Below are positions 51,612-64,000 of a DNA stretch of 64,000 nucleotides, piece after piece (the stretch's first letter is position 1; each line of letters opens with the position of its first letter). The stretch is from Aestuariivirga litoralis. GTDB taxonomy: Bacteria; Pseudomonadota; Alphaproteobacteria; Rhizobiales; Aestuariivirgaceae. The notes under the pieces were generated by a model. That model did no database searches, was not told the origin of the DNA, and saw nothing but the letters and a program-made list of their open reading frames with translations. Where the stretch lies: NCBI RefSeq assembly GCF_015714715.1, contig NZ_WAHS01000001.1:496001-560000 (forward strand). The letters are read 5' to 3'. Both the position numbers and the translations under genes were made by a program.

Positions 51612-51693
51612 TAAGGCCAATGTTTTGCGTTGAACGAGCATAAGCGCAAAGCTGCAGTTCTCATTGAGGAGGCCACTTCACTGGGAGACTGTT

Positions 51694-52176
51694 ATGAACA
51701 AATTTTCTATCGCGTTGCTCGTCACTGCGACTGCCTTTGGATTCCAGGCCGCTGACGCCAGCGCCAAGGTGCATCACAAACACAAGAGCCATCACAAGGC
51801 GATGCATTATGCATCGGCAGCCGTGGTGGCCCGTATTGACATCAGCTCACAGCGTCTGACGGTCAGCGTGAATGGCCAGAACTATGGCAGCTGGCCGGTT
51901 TCCACAGCGCGTGCCGGCTATCACACGCCGCGCGGCACCTATGGTGCGATCCGGATGGCGCGGGTTTATTATTCCAAGAAATATGACATGTCGCCGATGC
52001 CGAACTCAGTGTTCTTCTATGGCGGCTATGCCATCCATGGCACCTATCATGTGAGCGGCCTTGGCCGCCCCGCCAGCCATGGTTGCGTGCGCCTGGCACC
52101 CGTCAATGCGGCCCAGCTTTACTCGCTGGTGGCGCGCTACGGAATGGGTAATACGCGGATTGTGATTACAGATTAA
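51694..52176 (+). CDS. L,D-transpeptidase (YkuD), tandem copy 1
   Basis: A 160-residue exported enzyme: signal peptide (about 1-25, ending ADASA), a His/Lys-rich spacer (KVHHKHKSHHK) and a compact YkuD domain with IHGTYHVSGLG and the catalytic SHGCVRL. It forms 3-3 cross-links or attaches proteins to peptidoglycan. GGGAG seven bases before the ATG at 51694 fixes the start. The next gene is a close paralogue. Confidence 0.92.
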   Translation: MNKFSIALLVTATAFGFQAADASAKVHHKHKSHHKAMHYASAAVVARIDISSQRLTVSVNGQNYGSWPVSTARAGYHTPRGTYGAIRMARVYYSKKYDMSPMPNSVFFYGGYAIHGTYHVSGLGRPASHGCVRLAPVNAAQLYSLVARYGMGNTRIVITD

Positions 52177-52309
52177 TCACAAGATAGGTGGCTAAACCCG
52201 CCGTCTCTTCATCTTCAAAAAATGTTAATAGAAGTTAACGGGCCCCTTGCGGGGCCTCGCAAGCTCTGCGTAAATAAGGAACGGGGCAACTTACATTTTT
52301 GGAGACAAC

Positions 52310-52783
52310 ATGCGCAGGCTTCTTCTGGGGCTCATCTTGCCCCTTTCATTTATTATCATGAGCGCTTCGGCGCAGGCCGCATTCGGCGACCTTTTCAGAC
52401 CGCGTCCGAATTTTGGTTCGCCCGGCAATGTGGTGGCCCATATTGATATCTCGAGCCAACGCCTTGATCTGACCGTAAATGGCATTCCTTATGGCAGCTA
52501 TGCCGTATCCACCGCGCGTGCCGGTTATCACACGCCGCGTGGCCGCTATGGCGTGACCCGCCTGGCCAAGGTTTACTATTCCAAGAAGTACGACAATGCG
52601 CCGATGCCGAATTCGGTGTTCTTCTATGGCGGCTATGCCATCCATGGCACCGGCCACATTGCCAATCTCGGCCGCCCGGCCAGCCATGGCTGCGTTCGTC
52701 TCGCCCCGCAGAATGCTGCAATGCTATTCAGCCTGGTGCAGAAGTATGGCGCCCGGCACACCCGCATCATCCTGACCGATTGA
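52310..52783 (+). CDS. L,D-transpeptidase (YkuD), tandem copy 2
   Basis: A 157-residue paralogue of the preceding gene, sharing VSTARAGYHTPRG, YYSKKYD, PMPNSVFFYGGYAIHG and RPASHGCVRLAP. The signal peptide ends ASAQA and it lacks the His-rich spacer of copy 1. TGGAGA precedes the ATG. GGCCCC-TTGC-GGGGCC (52241-52256) in the 133-base gap between the copies forms a hairpin without a T-run. It ends in a TGATG overlap with the SDR gene. Confidence 0.93.
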   Translation: MRRLLLGLILPLSFIIMSASAQAAFGDLFRPRPNFGSPGNVVAHIDISSQRLDLTVNGIPYGSYAVSTARAGYHTPRGRYGVTRLAKVYYSKKYDNAPMPNSVFFYGGYAIHGTGHIANLGRPASHGCVRLAPQNAAMLFSLVQKYGARHTRIILTD

Positions 52784-54468: not shown

Positions 54469-55428
54469 CTAAAGTGGCTTTTCCGTGTTACTATCCCGCT
54501 TGCTATTGCTGGTGAGGGCCTCTTTCAGGCACCAATCGCGGAACAGGGTTACCAGAGGATTAGCGGCCTGATTGGGCGCCGACAGGATGTGATAGGCAAA
54601 TTGCGGTGGCGCGCGCAGTGCCAGCTCAAACGGCTTCACCAGACGGCCGCGCGCCAGATCGTCAGCCACCAAGTTTGAATCACCAAGCGCCACGCCCATA
54701 CCGTCAATGGCGGCTTGCACGGCAAATGATGTCTGCTGGAAATGCAGTCCCGACTTGTCATCAAAGTCAGCAATGCCGGCGGCGGCCATCCACATTTTCC
54801 AGTTCGGCCAGGCGGCGCCATGGCCCTCCCAATCCAGATGGATGAGTTTGAACTTCAACAGATCACGCGGGGATTTAAGCGGGCGTTCCTTGGTGATGAT
54901 AGAGGGGCTGCAGACGGGGAACACCTTGTCCTGAAACAGCAACACGGAATCGAGGCCCGGATAATTGCCGTCGCCAAAGCGGATGGCGACGTCGACATCA
55001 TCGCGGTCAAAATCCACCGGCACATGGGTCACGTCGATGCGCACATCAGCACCGGGTGCTATTTCGAGAAAGCGGTCCAGGCGCGGCACCAGCCATTTTG
55101 CGGCCAACGAGGGCGAGGCGGACACTTTGAGCTGGTTGCGATTCTCCAGCCGCTTGATGCGTTTGATGGCGCGGCCCAGCATTTCGAGGCTTTCGCTGCA
55201 CGCGGTTAACAGAATCTCACCTTCGCGGGTCAATGCCATGGACCGGCTGGTGCGGTTAAACACCGTTACACCAAGCTGATCTTCGATCTCTTTGATCTGG
55301 TGGCTAATGGCCGCCGGGGTGACGCCAAGTTCTTGTGCGGCTTTGGAAAAACTCATGTGGCGACCGGCTGCGGTGAACGCCCGCATTGAGCGCAAACCGG
55401 GGAAACGTTCTAGGAGTGAAATCACCAT
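54469..55428 (-). CDS. LysR family transcriptional regulator (GcvA-like)
   Basis: The 319-residue regulator has an N-terminal winged helix (about 14-73: MRAFTAAGRHMSFSKAAQEL, TPAAISHQIKEIE) and a periplasmic-binding-like effector domain (about 100-300). It most resembles the GcvA/AmpR subgroup. The ATG at 55428 is used; a TTG two codons upstream is an artefact of open frame. It is on the same strand as the carnitine-type operon further right but separated by a divergent small gene and terminator; it may control that small gene. Confidence 0.9.
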   Translation of the reverse strand: MVISLLERFPGLRSMRAFTAAGRHMSFSKAAQELGVTPAAISHQIKEIEDQLGVTVFNRTSRSMALTREGEILLTACSESLEMLGRAIKRIKRLENRNQLKVSASPSLAAKWLVPRLDRFLEIAPGADVRIDVTHVPVDFDRDDVDVAIRFGDGNYPGLDSVLLFQDKVFPVCSPSIITKERPLKSPRDLLKFKLIHLDWEGHGAAWPNWKMWMAAAGIADFDDKSGLHFQQTSFAVQAAIDGMGVALGDSNLVADDLARGRLVKPFELALRAPPQFAYHILSAPNQAANPLVTLFRDWCLKEALTSNSKRDSNTEKPL

Positions 55429-55440
55429 CTTCAAATTATC

Positions 55441-55765: not shown

Positions 55766-56506
55766 CTACACAAGGATTTCGAGCAGGCGCTTGAGAATGA
55801 GGTCTCGGCCCTTTGTGCCCAGTTCGGTTGAGGCCTGTGCCGCCGTCTCTGTGTACCAGCCTTTGTTCTCCCGATGCCTCGCCATGTCCACGGCTTCCGG
55901 ACACAAAGCCATCATCAATGACGTCTCGCCAATTCCAGCGTGATCGAAGGGGAAACCCTCCATCACCTCGCGCGACATCAGCGGATGGATTTTCACAAGG
56001 TTGAACGGGTCATCGCCGCCGCGATCCTTGGCGTAATAAGCCGCCATATCCTTTTTGCCCCACCAGCCTTCGCCGCGCTGTTCCTCTACAAAGCGGAAGC
56101 AGGCTTGGCGCGCGCCCAACCGGAAGGACAGATCGGTCGGCATGCCATTGGCGAAGTTTTCCGACTGGTGATGGATGATGCCGTGAATGTTTCGGAAGCC
56201 GATTTTCAGCAGGCCGTAAAACAGTTCCTCCGCGAAGGGTGCGAGTGCCTTGCCGTTAACCTGCACTGAGCCATTGCCTTCCGGCTTCTCCACCGCATAG
56301 CTGGCCGCGCCGTAATAGAAGGGCGGCAGGATCACGATGTCGCGCTGCTTCTCGACAAGCTCCAGCATGCGGATCACCACCAGCGTATCCATGCCGAGGC
56401 CCAGATGTTCGCCGTGATATTCGAGCACGCCCAATGGCAGCACGACAGGCGTATTGTTCGCGATGGCTTGCCGCAGCTGATGCGGCAACATCAGCTCGTA
56501 GCGCAT
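55766..56506 (-). CDS. Creatininase family amidohydrolase
   Basis: The 246-residue protein has the family metal site LPLGVLEYHGEHLGLGMDT (about 23-41) with the expected Glu, His and Asp, then HHQSENF and a later DHAGIGETSLMM with the final Glu. Family members open lactam or amide bonds (creatinine, formamidopyrimidines, peptides). It is the last gene of the carnitine-type operon, overlapping the hydratase gene by TAATG. Activity on a carnitine-derived compound is only a suggestion of context. Confidence 0.85.
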   Translation of the reverse strand: MRYELMLPHQLRQAIANNTPVVLPLGVLEYHGEHLGLGMDTLVVIRMLELVEKQRDIVILPPFYYGAASYAVEKPEGNGSVQVNGKALAPFAEELFYGLLKIGFRNIHGIIHHQSENFANGMPTDLSFRLGARQACFRFVEEQRGEGWWGKKDMAAYYAKDRGGDDPFNLVKIHPLMSREVMEGFPFDHAGIGETSLMMALCPEAVDMARHRENKGWYTETAAQASTELGTKGRDLILKRLLEILV

Positions 56507-57288
56507 TACTTGCCTTTCCAGACCGGCGGGCGCTTCTCAGCGAAGGCTTTTGCACCCTCCAACTGGTCTTCGGATGAATAGAGCTTGTCGACGGTTTTCA
56601 GCTTGCGCTTGGTGACCATATCAAAGGCCTGCTGCACGGGCAGGTGGCCCGTTTCGCGGTCCACTTCCTTGATCGCCGCGAAAACCAGCGGCGGGCCGCT
56701 GGCCAGTTGGGCCGCCACTTCACGGGCGCGTTCCATCAATTTATCAGCGGGCAGGATTTCGTTAATCAGGCCCCAATGCTTGGCCTCCTTGGCATCCACC
56801 GTGCGGCCGGTGAACAGCATTTCCATCGCCACATGATAGGGAATGCGGCGGGGCAGCTTGATGGTAGCGGCATCGGCTACTGTGCCGGAGCGGATTTCGG
56901 GCAGCGCGAAGGTCGCGTGCTCAGCCACCAAAATGATGTCGCATGAGATCATGATTTCAAAGCCGCCGCCGAAGGCCAGGCCATTCACTGCGCAGATCAC
57001 CGGCTTGTTGAGGCCGGGCAATTCCTGCAGGCCGCCGAAGCCACCCACGCCGTAATCCGAGTCCGGTGCTTCACCGGCGGCGGCGGCCTTCAAATCCCAG
57101 CCGGGGCAGAAGAACTTTTCGCCAGCACCTGTGAGGATCGCCACGCGCAATTCCGGATCATCACGGAATTTGGCAAAGGTTTCGCCCATGATGCGCGAGG
57201 TGGCGGCATCAATGGCATTGGCCTTGGGCCGGTCCAGAGTGACTTCGAGGACAGCGCCTTTTTTCTCAACGCGGAGGGGGGATGACAT
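56506..57288 (-). CDS. caiD: Crotonobetainyl-CoA hydratase-like enoyl-CoA hydratase (CaiD type)
   Basis: This crotonase hydrates an enoyl-CoA. The 260-residue sequence closely follows E. coli CaiD: VTLDRPKANAIDAATS, LRVAILTGAGEKFF, PGWDLKAAAAGEAPDS and the C-terminal AFAEKRPPVWKGK. It would convert crotonobetainyl-CoA to carnitinyl-CoA. The oxyanion and Glu regions (NGLAFGGGFEI, FALPEIRSG) are intact. It lies two bases after the acyl-CoA ligase gene. The resemblance to CaiD is from memory of the family. Confidence 0.88.
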   Translation of the reverse strand: MSSPLRVEKKGAVLEVTLDRPKANAIDAATSRIMGETFAKFRDDPELRVAILTGAGEKFFCPGWDLKAAAAGEAPDSDYGVGGFGGLQELPGLNKPVICAVNGLAFGGGFEIMISCDIILVAEHATFALPEIRSGTVADAATIKLPRRIPYHVAMEMLFTGRTVDAKEAKHWGLINEILPADKLMERAREVAAQLASGPPLVFAAIKEVDRETGHLPVQQAFDMVTKRKLKTVDKLYSSEDQLEGAKAFAEKRPPVWKGK

Positions 57289-57290
57289 TT

Positions 57291-59324
57291 TTACGACCTC
57301 TTTCTGATCAAAGCATCGGCGGCCACGGTACCATTGGACAGCACAAAGAGCGGGTTGATATCGAGTTCTTCCAAGGTGGCTTCGTGCGCGGCAGCAAAAG
57401 CGGCTACGGCTTCGATGGCCGTGATGACGCTTTCGGTGTCGCCCTTTTTGCCACGAAAGCCTTCGACCAATTTCCAGATGCGCAAGGATTGCAGCGCGCG
57501 GGTGATTTCGGCGCGGCTGGTAGGCAGCAGAAGCGTGGCGCTGTCCTTCAGTAGTTCTGTGAGAATGCCGCCAGCGCCGACCACAAGGGCCAGGCCGAAT
57601 TGTGGATCGCGCTTCACGCCCACGATCAATTCGGTGACCGCACCTTGCACCATCTTCTCAACCAGAACTTCGGGCCCGAGCTCGGCCATCTTGTTGGCGG
57701 CGAACTGGGCTTCGGCTTCGGTCTTGAGGTTCAAAGCCACGCCACCGGCTTCGGTTTTGTGGGCGATGGATTCTGAAGAGGTTTTTACCACGACAGGAAA
57801 GCCTAGCTTTGCTGAGGCTTTGCCGGCTTCGGCGATCTTCACCACTGCGCCTTCGGGGACGGTAAGACCATGTGATTTCAGCAGCTGCTTCCCAGCCGCT
57901 TCAGTCAACAATTTCGCTTCCTCGTACCCGCTTTTGTCCGGATGACGAAGGGTGGGGGGTGGTTCGTTGCGTGCCCAGTTCTCGCCGATGAAGGCTGCGG
58001 CTTCGAGAGCGGTGAGCGTGTCGTCAAAGCCCATCATCGGCGCGATGCCATCGGCGGTGAGCTGCACCATCATGGCGCGCGTCATGTTTTCCGGGAAGGT
58101 GGCCAGCACCACGGCGCGCGATTTGTTGGCCTTGGCGGCGGCACTGAAGGCGCGGGCGGTTTTCAACCAAGCAGCAGGGTCGGTTTGCGGCAGCGCCGGG
58201 GTGTCGAGGATCAGCACGCCGCAATCAAAGCCGCCCGAAAGTGTTGCGGTGAATGTAGCAGTGAGCTTCTCCTCATCGTTCCAGATGAAGGTGTGATAGT
58301 CGAACGGATTGTCAACCGAGACGAATTCATTGAGCGATTGCTTGATCTTCGGCTTGGTTTCTTCCTTGAAGGGCGGGAAGGACACTTTGCGCCCCACCGC
58401 CATGTCGGCGATCAGCGCGGCTTCGCCGCCGGAGCAGGAATGCGACACGAGGCGGCCGCCGGGCAGGGGGCCGCCGTGATGCAGAAGCTTCAGGGCTTCC
58501 GCCAGTGCCGTGACGCTGGTGACGCGCGCGATGCCATAGCGTTCGAACATCGCGTCATAGAGCTGGTCTGCACCGGACAGCGACGAGGTGTGGCTCATGG
58601 TGACCTTGGCGCCCTGTTCGGACTTGCCGGTCTTGATCGCGACGATGGGTTTCTTCTTGCTGCGCGCCTTGGCCGCGACCGCTGCAAAAGCCGAGACATT
58701 CTTGATGCCTTCAATGTGCAGGCCGATGGCGGTGACGCGCGGGTCATCCACCAGCGTATCCACCATGCGGGTAATATCCACATCCGCCTGGTTGCCCATG
58801 GTGAAGATCGCGGCCAGCGGCAATTCGCGCTGAGTAGTGGTGAGGTTGACGGCGATGTTGCCTGATTGCGTGATGATGGCGACACCCTTGTCGCGCACCT
58901 GAATGCCATGTTCATCGGGCCAGAGTGCGGCACGGGAAAGCCCGTTGACGAAGCCATAGCAGTTCGGCCCCATCAGCGGCATGCCGTCTGCGGCTTTCAG
59001 CAATTCAGCCTGCAAATCCGTGGCGCCAGCTTCGGCAAAGCCCGCGGCATAGATCACAGCGCCGCCGCAGCCCTTGGCCCGCAGCTGGCGCACGATTTCC
59101 ACTGCGGGTTCACGCTTCACCGCGATGAAGGCCGCATCGATGGGGCCTTCGATCTCATCAACCGATTTTACGGTCTTGATACCGCCGAGTTCTTCGCGCT
59201 TCGGGTGAACGGCGTAGATATTGCCGGGGAATTCAAATTCGCGGGTGCGCTTGATGGCAATCGCGCATTCATTGCCGCCGACGAAGACGATGGATTTAGG
59301 ATTGAGGAAACGGGAGAGAGACAT
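57291..59324 (-). CDS. ADP-forming acetate--CoA ligase family protein (single-chain)
   Basis: The 677-residue protein fuses an alpha part (CoA-binding, about 1-130; succinyl-CoA-ligase-like flavodoxin domains to about 450, with the phosphorylatable His in MSHTSSLSG) and a beta ATP-grasp part (about 470-677: GFPVVVKTSSESIAHKTEAG, ending LDINPLFVL). It makes acyl-CoA from acid, ATP and CoA, producing ADP and phosphate. Here it probably activates gamma-butyrobetaine or carnitine in place of CaiC/CaiB. It overlaps the dehydrogenase gene by one base (TGATG). Confidence 0.9.
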   Translation of the reverse strand: MSLSRFLNPKSIVFVGGNECAIAIKRTREFEFPGNIYAVHPKREELGGIKTVKSVDEIEGPIDAAFIAVKREPAVEIVRQLRAKGCGGAVIYAAGFAEAGATDLQAELLKAADGMPLMGPNCYGFVNGLSRAALWPDEHGIQVRDKGVAIITQSGNIAVNLTTTQRELPLAAIFTMGNQADVDITRMVDTLVDDPRVTAIGLHIEGIKNVSAFAAVAAKARSKKKPIVAIKTGKSEQGAKVTMSHTSSLSGADQLYDAMFERYGIARVTSVTALAEALKLLHHGGPLPGGRLVSHSCSGGEAALIADMAVGRKVSFPPFKEETKPKIKQSLNEFVSVDNPFDYHTFIWNDEEKLTATFTATLSGGFDCGVLILDTPALPQTDPAAWLKTARAFSAAAKANKSRAVVLATFPENMTRAMMVQLTADGIAPMMGFDDTLTALEAAAFIGENWARNEPPPTLRHPDKSGYEEAKLLTEAAGKQLLKSHGLTVPEGAVVKIAEAGKASAKLGFPVVVKTSSESIAHKTEAGGVALNLKTEAEAQFAANKMAELGPEVLVEKMVQGAVTELIVGVKRDPQFGLALVVGAGGILTELLKDSATLLLPTSRAEITRALQSLRIWKLVEGFRGKKGDTESVITAIEAVAAFAAAHEATLEELDINPLFVLSNGTVAADALIRKRS

Positions 59325-60487
59325 CAGCCACCCAGCGGACGGAGCAAAGCGCGGCTGATGATGTGGCGCTGGATTTCGGATGTGCCTTCCCAGATGCGTT
59401 CGACGCGCGCGTCACGCCAGATGCGTTCCAAGGGCAGGTCACTCATCAGGCCCATGCCGCCGTGAATCTGGATGGCTTCATCGGCCACCATGGCCAGCAC
59501 TTCGGTGGCCTTGAGCTTGGCCATGGCCATGTCCATTTCCTGAACAGTGCCCTGGTCATATTTCCAGGCGGCTTCGAAAGTGAGGAGTTCAGCGGCCTTC
59601 AGCTCCATCGCCATGTCGGCGAGCTTGAAGGATACGCCCTGGAACTTGCCGATCTGCTGGCCGAATTGCACGCGGTCCACCGCCCATTGCTTGGCGAGAT
59701 CGAGTGCGCGTTCGGCGCGGCCGAGGCAGGTGGAGGCCACTTGCAAGCGTGTGGCCCCGAGCCAGGCACCGGCCACTTCGAAGCCCTTATGCACTTCGCC
59801 CAACACTTGCGCCTTGTTCACGCGGCAATCGTTGAATTCCAGAATGCAGTTCTGATAGCCGCGATGGGAGACGTTCTTGTAGCCGTCGCGAACGGTGAAA
59901 CCGGGCGTGCCCTTGTCGATCAGGAAGGCTGTGATCAGCTTCTTCTTGCCGCGCGGGGTGTCCTCCTCGCCGGTGGCAGCGAACAGGATCACAAACGTGG
60001 CTTCGTCGGCATGGCTGATGAAATGCTTGGTGCCGTTGATGACGAAATCATCGCCGTCAGCCTTCGCGAAGGTTTTCATGCCGCGCAAGTCAGAGCCGAT
60101 GCCGGGTTCTGTGAGGGCGAGGCAGTCTGAGGCTTTGCCTTCAATGGCGGGGAACAGGTATTTCTTGCGCTGCTCTTCATTGCAGGCGAGCAGGATGTTG
60201 GACGGGCGGAACACGCAGTTCCAATGCAGCGCGTAAGAGGCGCGGCCGAGCTCGCGTTCGTAGAGGCACCAGGTCAGCGTATCGAGACCCGCACCGCCCA
60301 CTTCGGCTGGCATGTTGGCGGCATAAAGACCGGCCTGCATGGCCTTGGCCTTGATCTCGTCGCGCAGTTCGGGGCGCAGGATGCCGGTGGCCTCGATCTC
60401 GGCTTCATGCGGGAAAAGCTCGGCCTCCACGAAATCTCGGGTGGTCTTGACGATGAGCTTCTGTTCTTCGGTGAGATTGAAATCCAT
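59324..60487 (-). CDS. Acyl-CoA dehydrogenase
   Basis: The 387-residue FAD flavoprotein has the signature ALTEPGIGSDLRGMKT, a FAD-binding WAVDRVQFGQQIGKF, IQIHGGMGLM, and the catalytic base Glu367 in WEGTSEIQRH. Lying between the acyl-CoA ligase and an SDR in this operon, it would desaturate gamma-butyrobetainyl-CoA to crotonobetainyl-CoA, like CaiA. General short- or branched-chain dehydrogenases look alike, so the substrate is inferred from context. Electrons would pass to ETF encoded elsewhere. Confidence 0.93.
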   Translation of the reverse strand: MDFNLTEEQKLIVKTTRDFVEAELFPHEAEIEATGILRPELRDEIKAKAMQAGLYAANMPAEVGGAGLDTLTWCLYERELGRASYALHWNCVFRPSNILLACNEEQRKKYLFPAIEGKASDCLALTEPGIGSDLRGMKTFAKADGDDFVINGTKHFISHADEATFVILFAATGEEDTPRGKKKLITAFLIDKGTPGFTVRDGYKNVSHRGYQNCILEFNDCRVNKAQVLGEVHKGFEVAGAWLGATRLQVASTCLGRAERALDLAKQWAVDRVQFGQQIGKFQGVSFKLADMAMELKAAELLTFEAAWKYDQGTVQEMDMAMAKLKATEVLAMVADEAIQIHGGMGLMSDLPLERIWRDARVERIWEGTSEIQRHIISRALLRPLGG

Positions 60488-60493
60488 GAGGTC

Positions 60494-61261
60494 CTACTTA
60501 ATGTGGAATGCTTCGATATGGCCGTCCATCGCAACGTCCTGGCCATTGATCATGAAGGCGGCGGGGCTGGCCAGAAAGACTGCGAGGGCCGCAATTTCAT
60601 GCGCTTCAACAAAACGTTCCAGCGACTGGCCCGCGACAAGCTCGCGGGCCACACGGTCAAAAGGCATGTTGCGCAGGCTCGCCTCGCCCTGGATCACGCG
60701 GTTGATGCGGTCGCCCGCTACGCCGCCGGGGCAGATGGCATTACAGCGCACATTGTAGGGCCCAAGCTCAATCGCCAATGATTTGGTGAGGCCGATCACT
60801 GCCCATTTGGCGGCGGCATAGGGCGTGCGGTTGCCGAAGCCATATTGCCCGGCATTGGACGACATGTTGAGGATGAGGCCGGATTTCTGCGCCTTCATCA
60901 CCGGGGCGGCGCGGCGGGCGCAGAGGAACTGCGCATCGAGGCAGATCTCGATGCATTCTTTCCACTCGGCCAGGTCGATGTCATCGACGGGTGCAGTGGG
61001 GCCCTTGATGCCGGCATTGTTGATCATCACATCGAGCCCGCCCAAATCTTCCAACGCATCATCGAACCAGGCATCGATTTCTGATTCTGAGCGCACATTG
61101 ACCTTGGTGGCGGCAATGTCGGGGAAATCCTTGCGGAAGATTTGCAGCGCCTCGTCATTCACGTCGCAGATGTGGACCTTGGCACCAGTGTCGTGGAACG
61201 CCTTAGCCATGGCGCGGCCAATGCCGGAGGCGGCCGCAGTGATCATTACGCGTTGCGCCAT
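60494..61261 (-). CDS. SDR family NAD(P)-dependent oxidoreductase in the carnitine-type operon
   Basis: The 255-residue classical SDR shows ITAAASGIGRAMA (the glycine loop, with TAAASGIG instead of TGxxxGIG), an Asp in HICDVND that favours NAD, NNAG, the Ser of LNMSSNAG and YAAAK. Such enzymes oxidise hydroxyl groups. In this operon it may act as a second hydroxyacyl dehydrogenase, or on a side product. It is one base from the PhzF gene. Confidence 0.92.
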   Translation of the reverse strand: MAQRVMITAAASGIGRAMAKAFHDTGAKVHICDVNDEALQIFRKDFPDIAATKVNVRSESEIDAWFDDALEDLGGLDVMINNAGIKGPTAPVDDIDLAEWKECIEICLDAQFLCARRAAPVMKAQKSGLILNMSSNAGQYGFGNRTPYAAAKWAVIGLTKSLAIELGPYNVRCNAICPGGVAGDRINRVIQGEASLRNMPFDRVARELVAGQSLERFVEAHEIAALAVFLASPAAFMINGQDVAMDGHIEAFHIK

Positions 61262-62095
61262 CTATTCCTCCATGATGCGGGCTGCGCCGGACACGCGGAT
61301 CGAGCTTCCAGACACATCGGAAAATTCAGCTGTGAGGCGCGAGGGTGAACCCATGTCATCGCCCTGATGGATGCTGATCTTGCCACCATGCGGCCATTTC
61401 AAATCGCGCAGATAGCCCGCAAAGGCCGCAGTGGAAGCGCCGGTGGCGGGGTCTTCATAGACACCGCCTGATGCGAAAGGGTTGCGGGTGTGGAACAGTT
61501 GCGGCGTTTCAGAAAAGACCAGCAGCACGGTGACCAGGCCATATTGGTTCATCAGTTTGCGGCCCTGGGCGAGATCGTATTTCATCGCGGAAAGTGCGGC
61601 GCGCGATTTGAGTGCGAGCACGAAATGATGAGCCCCGCCGTGGATCAGAGCAGGGGGAATGGCTGGATCGAGATCGGCCGTTGTGTAACCGAACAGGTCT
61701 CGCACCTGAGACACCAGAGATGCGGGCGCTTTGGCGGAGCGGGTGGGCGGCGATTGCAGGGCGGCGTGCATGGCGCCGTCTTCGACGTGGCCTTCCACCG
61801 TGATGTTGGCCTTGTTGAGTGCGAGCTTATAGACGCCGCCGCCATGCTTGCGGGCTAGTGCCGCACCCAGCGCGATCGTGGCATGGCCGCAGAAGGGCAC
61901 TTCGGATTCCGGCGAGAAATAGCGCACGCGGAAACCTTCCGGCGTGGGCACGGCGAAGACGGTTTCGGAATAGCCGAGATCAGCTGCGACGTTGCGCATG
62001 TCTGCATCCGGCGGCATGGCATCTTCCAGCACAACGCCCGCGGGGTTGCCGCCGCGGGTGCCATCTGAAAAGGCCGCTATGCGCAGGACATTCAC
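61262..62095 (-). CDS. PhzF family isomerase/epimerase-like protein
   Basis: The 277-residue protein has the two-lobed diaminopimelate-epimerase-like PhzF fold: FSDGTRGGNPAGVVLEDA, LGYSETVFA with the catalytic Glu, SPESEVPFCGHATIALG, and EDPATGASTAAFAGYL. PhzF proteins catalyse proton shifts on small acids. The start is a GTG five bases after the dehydrogenase stop. The role in carnitine degradation is unclear: perhaps isomerisation or racemisation. Confidence 0.9.
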   Translation of the reverse strand: MNVLRIAAFSDGTRGGNPAGVVLEDAMPPDADMRNVAADLGYSETVFAVPTPEGFRVRYFSPESEVPFCGHATIALGAALARKHGGGVYKLALNKANITVEGHVEDGAMHAALQSPPTRSAKAPASLVSQVRDLFGYTTADLDPAIPPALIHGGAHHFVLALKSRAALSAMKYDLAQGRKLMNQYGLVTVLLVFSETPQLFHTRNPFASGGVYEDPATGASTAAFAGYLRDLKWPHGGKISIHQGDDMGSPSRLTAEFSDVSGSSIRVSGAARIMEE

Positions 62096-62100
62096 GCTCG

Positions 62101-63129
62101 TTACTTCTTCTTCTTCTTCTTGTTTGATTTCTTGTCAGATTTTTTGGCTGGCTTCTTTTTCTTGGTGGCTTTCTCTTCACGCTCCAGCGACAGGCCTGAG
62201 CCGATCTTGTGCTTCTTGAAGAGCTTCATCATGTCCACCAGGATGGCGTTCCGCTTGGCTTCGATCTGGGCCACGCTGCGGCCAGCGGCCTGGGCATCAG
62301 TGCCGTCGATCAGGCGCTTCTCGAGAGCGTCATTCCATTTGGGGAATTTGAGATCGGTCCAGGGCAGTTCCAGCGTGGGATCAAACTGCTTCATGAAATC
62401 GCGCATGCCGCCGGGGCCGCCGCCGACATGATATGTCATGAAGGAACCCATGAAGGCCCACCGCATGCCGGCGGAATAAACGATGGAGTCATCGATGTCA
62501 CCGGTGGTCCCGATGTCCTTATCAAGGATGTGCAGTGCTTCGCGCCACAGGGCTTCCTGCAGGCGGTCACAGATATAGCCGTCGATTTCCTTTTTCAGGC
62601 GCAGCACCTGCATGCCCACTTGCTGGAAGTAAGCGTCGGCGCGGTCAAGCGAAGCTGCGTCGGTCTTGTTGCCGGGCACCAGTTCAACAAGCGGCAAAAG
62701 ATAGACCGGGTTGAACGGATGGCCGATCACCACGCGCTCAGGATGCTTGATGCATTGCGATTGCAGATTGCTGGGCAGGAAGCCTGAGGAGGATGACGAC
62801 AGCACCACGTTGGGTGCGGCAATCGCATCGAGATCGCGGAACAGCTTGATCTTCAGCTCTTCGCGTTCGGGGGCAGCCTCATGGATGAACTCGGCCTTCG
62901 ATGCCATCTTTGCCAGATCAGTCGTGAAGGTCAGCTTACCCTTGTTCTTGGACTTGCCGCGCAGTGCGTCGAGTGAGGGCCACGCCGTCTTGATGGCGGC
63001 CTTAAGCTTGGCTTCGGCGGCGGGGGATACGTCATAGGCGATGACGTCGATGCCGCGGTGCATGGCGCGAGCTGCCCAGCCTGCGCCGATGAGGCCGGTG
63101 CCGGCAATGCCGATGGTCTTGATTGTCAT
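62101..63129 (-). CDS. lcdH: Carnitine 3-dehydrogenase-like 3-hydroxyacyl-CoA dehydrogenase family protein with lysine-rich tail
   Basis: It would oxidise L-carnitine to 3-dehydrocarnitine with NAD. The 342 residues show the Rossmann loop IGIAGTGLIGAGWAARA, SSSSSGFLPSNLQ, the catalytic GHPFNPVYLLPLVE and a C-terminal helical domain. Carnitine dehydrogenases of some bacteria carry a fused thioesterase; here the C terminus instead ends in 27 residues of which 15 are Lys (316-342). Adjacency to a BKACE gene supports carnitine as substrate. It overlaps the next upstream gene by ATGA. Confidence 0.85.
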   Translation of the reverse strand: MTIKTIGIAGTGLIGAGWAARAMHRGIDVIAYDVSPAAEAKLKAAIKTAWPSLDALRGKSKNKGKLTFTTDLAKMASKAEFIHEAAPEREELKIKLFRDLDAIAAPNVVLSSSSSGFLPSNLQSQCIKHPERVVIGHPFNPVYLLPLVELVPGNKTDAASLDRADAYFQQVGMQVLRLKKEIDGYICDRLQEALWREALHILDKDIGTTGDIDDSIVYSAGMRWAFMGSFMTYHVGGGPGGMRDFMKQFDPTLELPWTDLKFPKWNDALEKRLIDGTDAQAAGRSVAQIEAKRNAILVDMMKLFKKHKIGSGLSLEREEKATKKKKPAKKSDKKSNKKKKKK

Positions 63130-63407
63130 TCCACATTTTCCATTTCAAAAAGTTCGTTCTTGGCGCCCGAAGCTGCGAGCAAATGTACATGCTGCAGGCG
63201 CCTTGCGTCGCCGCGGTAGGCTTCAAAATCTTCCATCGAGGAAAAAGTAACGATCTGCATTTCGCGCAGGCCATCCTTCGTCCTCAGGCGGCGCTCCAAG
63301 GTGCCGCCATAGTCCTTGATCAAGGGGATCACCTGGCCTTCGTACTCACCAAAGCTGGCAACACCGCCAGCAGGAATGGTTGCAACCATGACCAGAGTGA
63401 GTGCCAT
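63126..63407 (-). CDS. Small dimeric alpha-beta barrel (DUF1330/NIPSNAP-like) protein
   Basis: A 93-residue protein with a ferredoxin-like alpha-beta pattern (LVMVATIPAGGVASFGEYEG, MQIVTFSSMEDFEAYRGD). Members of this fold act as small binding or monooxygenase-like subunits; the role here is unknown. It sits between the BKACE and carnitine dehydrogenase genes with a five-base gap and a four-base overlap. Confidence 0.7.
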   Translation of the reverse strand: MALTLVMVATIPAGGVASFGEYEGQVIPLIKDYGGTLERRLRTKDGLREMQIVTFSSMEDFEAYRGDARRLQHVHLLAASGAKNELFEMENVE

Positions 63408-63412
63408 TTGAC

Positions 63413-64000
63413 CTATCCTTTTTTGAGCCCCAGGATTTCGCGGCCTTCCGCCGGCGTTGCCACCTTGGTGCCGAGCAGCTCAATCAGCTTCACGGCCTTT
63501 TCGGTGAGGCTGCCGTTGGAGGCGAACACTCCCTTTTCCAGATAGAGGTTGTCTTCCAGGCCGACGCGCACATGGCCGCCCAAAAGCACGGCCTGCGCCA
63601 CCGCATTGAATTGCAGACGGCCGATGGAGAAGGCAGCCCAGATGGCATCCGGCGGAAGCAGGGCCTTCTGATAGGCCATGGTTTCGGGAGAGAAGGGCGC
63701 ACCCCACGGAATGCCAAGGCACAGCTGGTACATCGGCTTCGGATCAATCAGGCCTTCCTTGACCATCTGATTGGCGAACCACAAATTGCCTGAGTCAAAG
63801 ATTTCCATTTCCGGCTTCACGCCGTAGGATTTGATCAGCCTGGCCTGTTCGCGCAGCTGGGTGGGGGTCTGCACCACGATGGACTGGCCATCGCCGAAAT
63901 TCAGCGAGCCGCAATCCAGTGTGCAGATTTCCGGGCGCAGTTCCTTGATGTGGATGAGGCGTTCCAGCGGGCCCACCACGTCGGTGCCTTCTCCGAACTT
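63413..64000 (-). CDS. BKACE family beta-keto acid cleavage enzyme, 5' end outside window
   Basis: About 195 C-terminal residues of a roughly 300-residue enzyme are visible and the frame continues past the right edge. It has the family's [32 protein letters not shown] and [14 protein letters not shown], which place substrate and Zn ligands. BKACEs split beta-keto acids with acetyl-CoA; next to carnitine dehydrogenase the substrate is probably 3-dehydrocarnitine, giving acetoacetate and betainyl-CoA. A thioesterase to release betaine is not in the window. Confidence 0.9.

What the first reader, a model, noticed from the sequence alone, without database searches (positions are those of the whole stretch)
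55766..64000. Nine-gene operon that looks like a complete gamma-butyrobetaine/carnitine degradation route
Acyl-CoA ligase, acyl-CoA dehydrogenase and a CaiD-like hydratase could take gamma-butyrobetaine to carnitinyl-CoA; carnitine dehydrogenase and BKACE could take carnitine to a betaine product. All genes are in one direction with overlaps or gaps of six bases or less. I know the separate parts from E. coli cai genes and Pseudomonas/Rhizobium carnitine catabolism; having them together with PhzF, SDR and creatininase members is not a layout I recognise.
Basis: partly seen in the sequence, partly recalled or inferred. Interest (0 to 1): 0.7.

Follow-up and report, generated by a model that had tools for sequence, protein, structure and literature searches.

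The report
Carnitine-degradation operon in Aestuariivirga
This bacterium carries a one-direction set of nine genes that most likely breaks down carnitine and its precursor gamma-butyrobetaine; the core is a known rhizobial pathway, and the open questions are a missing thioesterase domain and a second dehydrogenase that may handle the mirror-image form of carnitine.

Summary
The nine-gene run is real: nine same-strand ORFs, gaps of -4 to +6 bases; BKACE runs 300 bases past the window. The carnitine/gamma-butyrobetaine reading is well supported. Dehydrogenase and BKACE nest inside families tied to each other in Pseudomonas, Burkholderia, Rhizobium, Halomonas and Bacillus, and the core order BKACE-CDH-ACAD-ligase-hydratase recurs in 44 of the 58 fetched loci that hold all five, including an annotated Rhizobium leguminosarum plasmid. 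So the core layout is not new: it is the rhizobial route with an ADP-forming ligase. Three qualifications. (1) The thioesterase domain fused to the dehydrogenase in relatives is absent here, apparently lost; what frees betaine is unknown. (2) PhzF, a 93-residue ferredoxin-fold protein and the creatininase-family gene are lineage-specific additions of unknown role. (3) The SDR belongs to a BKACE-linked clade that, by gene position, includes deoxyribonate dehydrogenase; I propose that it oxidises D-carnitine to 3-dehydrocarnitine (untested). A LysR gene downstream is a likely regulator. My idea that the ligase replaces the thioesterase failed in a wider sample. I saw no assay of any protein of this operon.

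The parts
63413..64000 (-). [quoted passage not shown] continues to position 64300 outside the window (295 aa); proposed 3-dehydrocarnitine + acetyl-CoA -> betainyl-CoA + acetoacetate
   Evidence: PF05853 315 bits, cut-off 24.8; inside the clade (SH-aLRT 100) of 101 of 103 CDH-linked BKACE rows, the three own-genome paralogues in the tree outside; HCHVR and GLED motifs present
63126..63407 (-). 93-aa orphan protein, predicted ferredoxin-like (alpha/beta-barrel) fold; role unknown
   Evidence: no Pfam/NCBIfam hit; model pLDDT 75, Foldseek to NIPSNAP and antibiotic-biosynthesis-monooxygenase-like proteins; one other of 61 genomes searched, same place
62101..63129 (-). L-carnitine 3-dehydrogenase-like (3HCDH family, 342 aa)
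   Evidence: best NCBIfam models L-carnitine dehydrogenase 347 bits (cut-off 414) and carnitine 3-dehydrogenase 326 (cut-off 592); tree position
62104..62172 (-). lysine-rich C-terminal tail, where relatives carry a fused 4HBT_2 thioesterase domain
   Evidence: ORF ends compared; fused in 4 and absent in 24 of 28 other genus genomes with a complete CDH ORF read; the 12 genus rows without it in the tree form one clade, SH-aLRT 98
61262..62095 (-). PhzF-family isomerase-like protein, lineage-specific
   Evidence: PF02567 173 bits; TIGR00654 139 bits, above cut-off 76; 0 of 36 other genomes of the genus, 5 of 24 others of the order
60494..61261 (-). SDR of the BKACE-linked clade; proposed D-configured 3-hydroxy-acid (D-carnitine) dehydrogenase
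   Evidence: passes only a generic FabG subfamily cut-off (230 vs 222 bits); below the 3-hydroxybutyrate dehydrogenase cut-off (199 vs 307), which another gene of the genome passes
59324..60487 (-). acyl-CoA dehydrogenase; proposed gamma-butyrobetainyl-CoA -> crotonobetainyl-CoA
   Evidence: Pfam; 63% to the R. leguminosarum cluster enzyme; best NCBIfam model acryloyl-CoA reductase 294 bits (cut-off 640), CaiA 182 (cut-off 540)
57291..59324 (-). ADP-forming acyl-CoA ligase (677 aa); proposed gamma-butyrobetaine:CoA ligase (BcoAB-like)
   Evidence: PF13380/PF13607/PF13549; 47% to the R. leguminosarum cluster ligase; His245 faces the phospho-His292 of DddX
56506..57288 (-). CaiD-like enoyl-CoA hydratase; proposed crotonobetainyl-CoA -> carnitinyl-CoA
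   Evidence: best NCBIfam crotonobetainyl-CoA hydratase 345 bits (cut-off 500), next model 234; 69% to the R. leguminosarum 'carnitinyl-CoA dehydratase'
55766..56506 (-). creatininase-family amidohydrolase, lineage-specific
   Evidence: PF02633 91 bits; creatininase equivalog 72 bits, cut-off 235; 11 of 36 other genomes of the genus, next to an ECH of this kind only in L182 among the loci mapped
54469..55434 (-). LysR/GcvA-like regulator, 331 bases downstream, same strand; likely regulator of the operon (inference)
   Evidence: GcvA subfamily NF008352 324 bits, above cut-off 288; follows ECH on the same strand in L042, L043, L046, L047, L053, L075, L077 and L187, L188, L194

Best explanation
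An Aestuariivirga catabolic operon for gamma-butyrobetaine and carnitine, a diverged cousin of the rhizobial bco/carnitine cluster. Proposed steps, all inferred from homology and gene order: the ADP-forming ligase makes gamma-butyrobetainyl-CoA; the acyl-CoA dehydrogenase makes crotonobetainyl-CoA; the CaiD-like hydratase makes carnitinyl-CoA; CoA is released (enzyme not in the operon); the 3HCDH-family dehydrogenase makes 3-dehydrocarnitine; BKACE with acetyl-CoA makes betainyl-CoA plus acetoacetate; CoA release gives glycine betaine. The thioesterase domain that would do the last step is absent in this subclade, apparently by loss. The SDR probably feeds BKACE from the mirror-image hydroxy acid, D-carnitine. 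PhzF, the 93-aa protein and the creatininase member have no assigned step.
For: Spacing and family hits. Dehydrogenase homologue at 74% identity or more in 30 of 36 other genomes of the genus. Core order in 44 of the 58 loci (of 200 examined) that hold all five core genes. R. leguminosarum pRLN5: BKACE, carnitine 3-dehydrogenase, ACAD, acetate-CoA ligase family, carnitinyl-CoA dehydratase, ABC transporter, in the window's order, 42-69% identical. Trees: CDH, BKACE. Fused thioesterase in 4 of 28 other genus genomes and in four other genera of the family (L050-L053). S. meliloti BcoAB is a gamma-butyrobetaine:CoA ligase (PMC8364193, passages); SM2011_c01638 does carnitine -> 3-dehydrocarnitine and betainyl-CoA -> betaine (PMC12482172, passages).
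Against: No protein reaches a carnitine-specific NCBIfam cut-off: 347 vs 414 and 326 vs 592 (dehydrogenase), 345 vs 500 (hydratase), 182 vs 540 (ACAD vs CaiA). The thioesterase domain is absent and no transporter lies in the operon; the genome has one OpuAC protein about 1.6 Mb away and no BCCT match. In G025 the ECH homologue and creatininase gene stand without the ligase before them, so ECH is not bound to the set. The primary S. meliloti paper could not be read. No experiment.
Confidence: 0.85

Rival explanations
1. The operon degrades a different zwitterionic or hydroxylated acid, such as DMSP or another betaine, by the same chemistry.
For: All scores lie below carnitine equivalog cut-offs; the closest solved relative of the ligase is the DMSP lyase DddX; relatives of the SDR sit in BKACE clusters with sugar-type transporters.
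Against: Window CDH and BKACE nest among families linked to each other across phyla; relatives carry the fused thioesterase; DddX Trp391, Glu432 and Phe435 face His, Ala and Leu in the window ligase, though that pairwise alignment is loose.
Confidence: 0.1
2. The SDR is a 3-hydroxybutyrate dehydrogenase that disposes of the acetoacetate released by BKACE, not a carnitine dehydrogenase.
For: Acetoacetate is the other BKACE product (PMC6365646, passages); 3-hydroxybutyrate dehydrogenase models are second and third best.
Against: 199 bits against a cut-off of 307, and the genome has another gene that passes (330 bits); the SDR falls in the BKACE-linked clade, that other gene outside.
Confidence: 0.15
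3. In thioesterase-less clusters the ADP-forming ligase runs backwards on betainyl-CoA and carnitinyl-CoA, freeing the acid and making ATP, so the thioesterase became dispensable.
For: In the first sample of BKACE-bearing loci with enough flank, 20 of 20 without a thioesterase carry the ligase against 23 of 62 with one.
Against: Not replicated: in the wider class sample 2 of 16 without a thioesterase carry the ligase against 9 of 32 with one; independent pairs on the tree gave no significance even in the first sample (median p 0.5). A standalone thioesterase homologue exists in the genome.
Confidence: 0.1

Closest known systems
Rhizobial gamma-butyrobetaine/carnitine cluster (S. meliloti bco and carnitine genes, from passages; R. 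leguminosarum pRLN5 cluster, from the annotated record)
   Same: Same five core families in the same order (BKACE, CDH, ACAD, ADP-forming ligase, CaiD-like hydratase); identities 50, 42, 63, 47, 69% to R. leguminosarum
   Different: No fused thioesterase, no ABC transporter behind the hydratase, LysR downstream instead of a GlxA-type gene beside BKACE; extra SDR, PhzF, 93-aa and creatininase-family genes
Pseudomonas carnitine catabolism (carnitine dehydrogenase, BKACE, DhcAB; route from PMC12482172 passages)
   Same: CDH and BKACE of the same families; window BKACE 63-66% identical to those of the eight fetched Pseudomonas loci
   Different: Those eight loci have a separate thioesterase and no ligase homologue near CDH
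E. coli cai operon (recalled, with PMC2131755 passages)
   Same: CaiD-like hydratase and an acyl-CoA dehydrogenase
   Different: ADP-forming instead of CaiC-type ligase; ACAD far below the CaiA cut-off; no CoA transferase among the nine; CDH and BKACE steps added
Deoxyribonate route of P. simiae and Paraburkholderia (SDR + BKACE; PMC6365646, passages)
   Same: An SDR makes a beta-keto acid that BKACE cleaves; relatives of the window SDR sit in that position in L304 and L309
   Different: Sugar-acid substrate; the BKACE of that kind is about 31-32% identical to the window's; no CDH

Membership tests
Rhizobial bco/carnitine cluster | Order BKACE-CDH-ACAD-ADP-forming ligase-CaiD-like hydratase on one strand | tested here: met
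   (in the window the 93-aa gene, PhzF and SDR lie in between)
Rhizobial bco/carnitine cluster | CDH fused to a betainyl-CoA thioesterase domain | tested here: not met
   342-aa CDH with a lysine-rich tail, no thioesterase domain; fused form in relatives
Rhizobial bco/carnitine cluster | Ligase active on gamma-butyrobetaine | not testable with these tools
   homology only; S. meliloti BcoAB activity from PMC8364193 passages
L-carnitine dehydrogenase NF005471 / carnitine 3-dehydrogenase NF005716 | Score above the curated cut-off | tested here: not met
   347 vs 414 and 326 vs 592 bits
L-carnitine dehydrogenase family (tree) | Nested among CDHs that neighbour BKACE and thioesterase genes | tested here: met
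   (quick tree, long outgroup, modest deep support); BKACE tree
BKACE (PF05853) | Pfam gathering cut-off | tested here: met
   315 bits vs 24.8
CaiD crotonobetainyl-CoA hydratase NF002936 | Score above the curated cut-off | tested here: not met
   345 vs 500 bits, though the best model by 111 bits
E. coli cai operon | CaiA-type dehydrogenase (NF002885 cut-off) | tested here: not met
   182 vs 540
ADP-forming acyl-CoA ligase superfamily | CoA-binding, ligase and ATP-grasp domains with phospho-His | tested here: met
DMSP lyase DddX | Proposed base Glu432 and cation-pi residues Trp391/Phe435 | tested here: not met
   they face Ala384, His344 and Leu387; residues from PMC8163506 passages
3-hydroxybutyrate dehydrogenase TIGR01963 | Score above the curated cut-off | tested here: not met
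   199 vs 307 bits
BKACE-linked SDR clade (deoxyribonate dehydrogenase type) | Groups with BKACE-adjacent SDRs apart from other SDRs of the genome | tested here: met
   100/97 for 39 rows; rows were chosen by similarity, so the grouping itself is partly expected
D-carnitine dehydrogenase | NAD-dependent oxidation of D-carnitine | not testable with these tools
   proposal from gene context and own stereochemical reasoning
Creatininase TIGR04448 | Score above the curated cut-off | tested here: not met
   72 vs 235 bits

The most novel reading that the evidence does not exclude
The operon SDR is a D-carnitine ((S)-carnitine) 3-dehydrogenase: it oxidises the mirror-image hydroxy acid to the same 3-dehydrocarnitine that the 3HCDH-family enzyme makes from L-carnitine, so two dehydrogenases of opposite handedness feed one BKACE. 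More generally, 3HCDH + SDR + BKACE triples would be racemate-degrading modules. This would give a gene to an activity known from whole cells and extracts.
Probability: 0.3. Interest if true: 0.45.

Novelty: new member of a known kind. Interest (0 to 1): 0.27.

Why it matters
As it stands it extends the aerobic gamma-butyrobetaine/carnitine route, with its gene order, to Aestuariivirgaceae, and shows that most members of one genus keep the cluster without the fused thioesterase domain. If the SDR proposal is right, it would offer a gene for D-carnitine oxidation, which bears on how bacteria remove racemic carnitine, and would explain a recurring SDR-BKACE partnership.

Tried and rejected
Ligase reversal replacing the thioesterase: striking in the first sample, not replicated in a wider one; kept only as a weak rival.

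Thioesterase relocation: a standalone 4HBT_2 homologue (G000:C1:424961-425446, 35% to the fused domain) matches in 35 of 36 other genomes of the genus, with or without a fused domain and also in the six without the operon's CDH, so it is no specific replacement, though it may serve.

PhzF, the 93-aa gene and the creatininase gene as conserved pathway members: rejected. A PhzF homologue (33%) does lie about 6 kb from a CDH homologue in L236, which has no BKACE nearby. The small protein between BKACE and CDH in Phaeobacter aligns only loosely with the 93-aa protein (24% identity) and was not found by phmmer among gap ORFs; only the G003 copy was.

Promoter and terminator scans of about 300 and 400 bases at the operon ends found nothing; they use sigma-70 and intrinsic-terminator patterns only. 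The paper of Bazire et al. 2019 was not held; no held paper has both 'Aestuariivirga' and 'carnitine'.
Full report
Observation. Nine minus-strand ORFs run from window 55766 to 64300, the last 300 bases of the BKACE gene lying outside the window (place). Neighbours are separated by -4 to +6 bases. In transcription order: BKACE, a 93-aa protein, a 3HCDH-family dehydrogenase (CDH), PhzF, SDR, acyl-CoA dehydrogenase (ACAD), an ADP/NDP-forming acyl-CoA ligase, a CaiD-like enoyl-CoA hydratase (ECH), a creatininase-family protein. A LysR/GcvA-type gene follows 331 bases later on the same strand. The ligase is not of the CaiC type.

Organism. The window lies in a 3.3 Mb genome of 4 contigs. Same-genus genome G018 has a contig of 114,671 bases that holds the operon; a record of the same length with the operon at the same place is Aestuariivirga litoralis KCTC 52945. 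So the genus is most likely Aestuariivirga (Aestuariivirgaceae, Hyphomicrobiales). This is an inference from contig length.

Conservation. A CDH at 74% identity or more is in 30 of 36 other genomes of the genus; it is missing in G006, G014, G015, G019, G025 and G033, three of them under 90% complete. In most loci of the genus and family the order is BKACE-CDH-SDR-ACAD-ligase-ECH, then often LysR. Of 200 loci examined, 58 held all five of BKACE, CDH, ACAD, ligase and ECH within 11 kb; 44 of these had them on one strand in the window's order and 14 had other arrangements. In R. leguminosarum pRLN5 the order is BKACE, carnitine 3-dehydrogenase, acyl-CoA dehydrogenase, acetate-CoA ligase family protein, carnitinyl-CoA dehydratase, ABC transporter, with 50, 42, 63, 47 and 69% identity to the window proteins. 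Against a fixed unit: in G025, where no CDH was found, an 85% ECH and a 75% creatininase homologue stand before LysR without the ligase in front of them.

Known pathway. From passages: S. meliloti BcoAB is a gamma-butyrobetaine:CoA ligase (PMC8364193); [quoted passage not shown] The primary paper (Bazire et al. 2019) is not held; I recall from its abstract that five enzymes do seven steps from gamma-butyrobetaine to glycine betaine, which comes from no call. An Arctic SAR11 region with CDH, BKACE and gamma-butyrobetaine dioxygenase is also in print (PMC12421898, passages).

Trees. CDH domain, 120 rows: the window row lies in a crown with CDHs of Pseudomonas, Burkholderia, Rhizobium, Halomonas and Bacillus, most of which have a 4HBT_2 thioesterase fused or near. 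It is a quick tree with a long outgroup and modest support at depth. BKACE, 106 rows: 101 of 103 CDH-linked rows (from 121 loci; the rest had no BKACE hit over 180 residues) form one clade (SH-aLRT 100) that holds the window's; the three own-genome paralogues in the tree lie outside, as do two rows (L105, L136) where the best BKACE hit was of another kind; a further own paralogue (L005) was dropped by my length filter. Against the assignment: no protein reaches a carnitine-specific NCBIfam cut-off.

Thioesterase. Of 28 other genus genomes with a complete CDH ORF read, 4 (G002, G005, G010, G027) have a thioesterase domain fused behind the CDH and 24 do not; four other genera of the family have it fused (L050-L053). 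The 12 genus rows without it in the tree, the window's included, form one clade (SH-aLRT 98). Loss on that branch is the simplest reading, but the tree does not fix the direction. The window CDH ends in a lysine-rich tail. The genome has a standalone homologue of the domain, matched in 35 of 36 other genomes of the genus, so it is a general gene that might serve. Price et al. propose that CoA release after another BKACE is genetically redundant (PMC6365646, passages), which fits. I tested whether absence goes with the ligase. First sample: 20 of 20 thioesterase-less against 23 of 62 others (82 BKACE-bearing loci of 89 with enough flank; the window was entered by hand; two thioesterase-less loci without BKACE, L117 and L122, have no ligase). 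Second sample, 80 loci from a search of 387 class genomes, 69 with enough flank, 48 of those with a BKACE: 2 of 16 against 9 of 32. The idea did not replicate.

Accessory genes. PhzF: none of 36 other genus members, 5 of 24 others of the order; beside unrelated genes in the two loci whose ORFs I printed (L183, L184), no operon homologue in L185 and L186. The 93-aa gene: one of 36, at the same place; its model has a ferredoxin-like fold (pLDDT 75) like NIPSNAP and antibiotic-biosynthesis-monooxygenase proteins. Creatininase family: 11 of 36, next to ECH only in G025 among those mapped. Two other genus members have a copper amine oxidase between ACAD and ligase. So the operon takes up genes lineage by lineage; I assign these no step.

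SDR. It is beside the CDH in 27 of the 28 genus genomes read (not in G013). Of 155 loci with BKACE and CDH, from many families, 30 have an SDR on the same strand within 3.5 kb, 29 of them 45% or more identical to the window's; most of the rest have none. I chose 18 of the 55 plasmid records that match the window SDR and looked 6 kb to each side: 13 have a BKACE (one truncated, L303), 5 do not (L293, L294, L295, L297, L308), among them the three most similar SDRs (51-59%). In the own genome the operon SDR alone, of 16 SDR places, lies within 10 kb of a BKACE (coordinates). The 22 carnitine-operon SDRs, 12 other BKACE-linked SDRs and those five group together (39 rows, 100/97) apart from 11 own-genome paralogues, among them the one that passes the 3-hydroxybutyrate dehydrogenase cut-off, and the third gene of L304; as rows were chosen by similarity, the grouping is partly expected. 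In L304 the SDR is the fourth gene counting BKACE as the first, as H281DRAFT_00644 is to 00641 in P. bryophila, where that SDR is the deoxyribonate dehydrogenase; the P. simiae enzyme was purified and shown to oxidise deoxyribonate (PMC6365646, passages). Own reasoning, from no call: L-carnitine has the handedness of L-3-hydroxy acids, the usual substrates of 3HCDH-family enzymes; D-carnitine and the C3 of deoxyribonate have the opposite one. D-carnitine dehydrogenase is a listed activity, and Agrobacterium sp. 525a cells turn D- into L-carnitine (PMC2131755, passages). A search for 'D-carnitine dehydrogenase' found two papers; I saw passages of one, which name no gene for it. Hence the proposal that the SDR is the D-carnitine arm.

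Verdict. A well-supported but unassayed carnitine/gamma-butyrobetaine operon, a new member of a known kind with a missing domain and turnover of accessory genes. Downstream betaine use is plausible: three SoxD-type sarcosine oxidase genes are in the genome.

Noticed in passing
L046:7473-9413 (-) and L187:6106-8046 (-): A 646-aa copper amine oxidase ORF sits between the acyl-CoA dehydrogenase and the ligase in two other species of the genus; Pfam was run on the L187 one.
   Followed up: partly
L064, L065, L066, L068, L073: Other Aestuariivirgaceae carry a second cluster ECH-CDH-BKACE with a 41-43% CDH; in the window's genome the only other CDH match is 34%.
   Followed up: partly
L182:2166-4965 (G025): ECH-creatininase-LysR stand without the rest of the operon in a genome with no CDH of this kind found (82% complete): remnant or separate use.
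   Followed up: partly
L009:8072-13565 (G000:C2 about 278-284 kb): Two further BKACE genes lie with genes that look like a flavin hydroxylase, an intradiol dioxygenase and a maleylacetate reductase-like protein: probably an aromatic route (names judged by eye).
   Followed up: no
L179:9961-10446 (-): Standalone 4HBT_2 thioesterase, 35% to the fused carnitine thioesterase domain, matched in 35 of 36 other genomes of the genus.
   Followed up: partly
window 51664-52783 (+): Two adjacent, very similar small secreted proteins that look by eye like L,D-transpeptidase (YkuD) domains.
   Followed up: no
L298, L301, L307 (plasmids of Phyllobacterium, Sagittula, Agrobacterium): SDR, 3-hydroxyacyl-CoA dehydrogenase and BKACE stand side by side with sugar ABC or TRAP transporter genes: possible modules for both enantiomers of another 3-hydroxy acid.
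   Followed up: partly
L300, L305, L306 (plasmids of Mesorhizobium, Phyllobacterium, Rhizobium): BKACE (48% to the window's in L300) directly before the SDR, with a branched-chain-type ABC transporter, hydantoinase-like genes and a thioesterase, no CDH: an SDR-BKACE route of unknown substrate.
   Followed up: no
L096, L098-L100, L102, L113, L116, L125: In a set of proteobacterial MAGs CDH and ACAD lie on one strand and ECH, ligase and BKACE on the other, an alternative layout of the same gene set.
   Followed up: no
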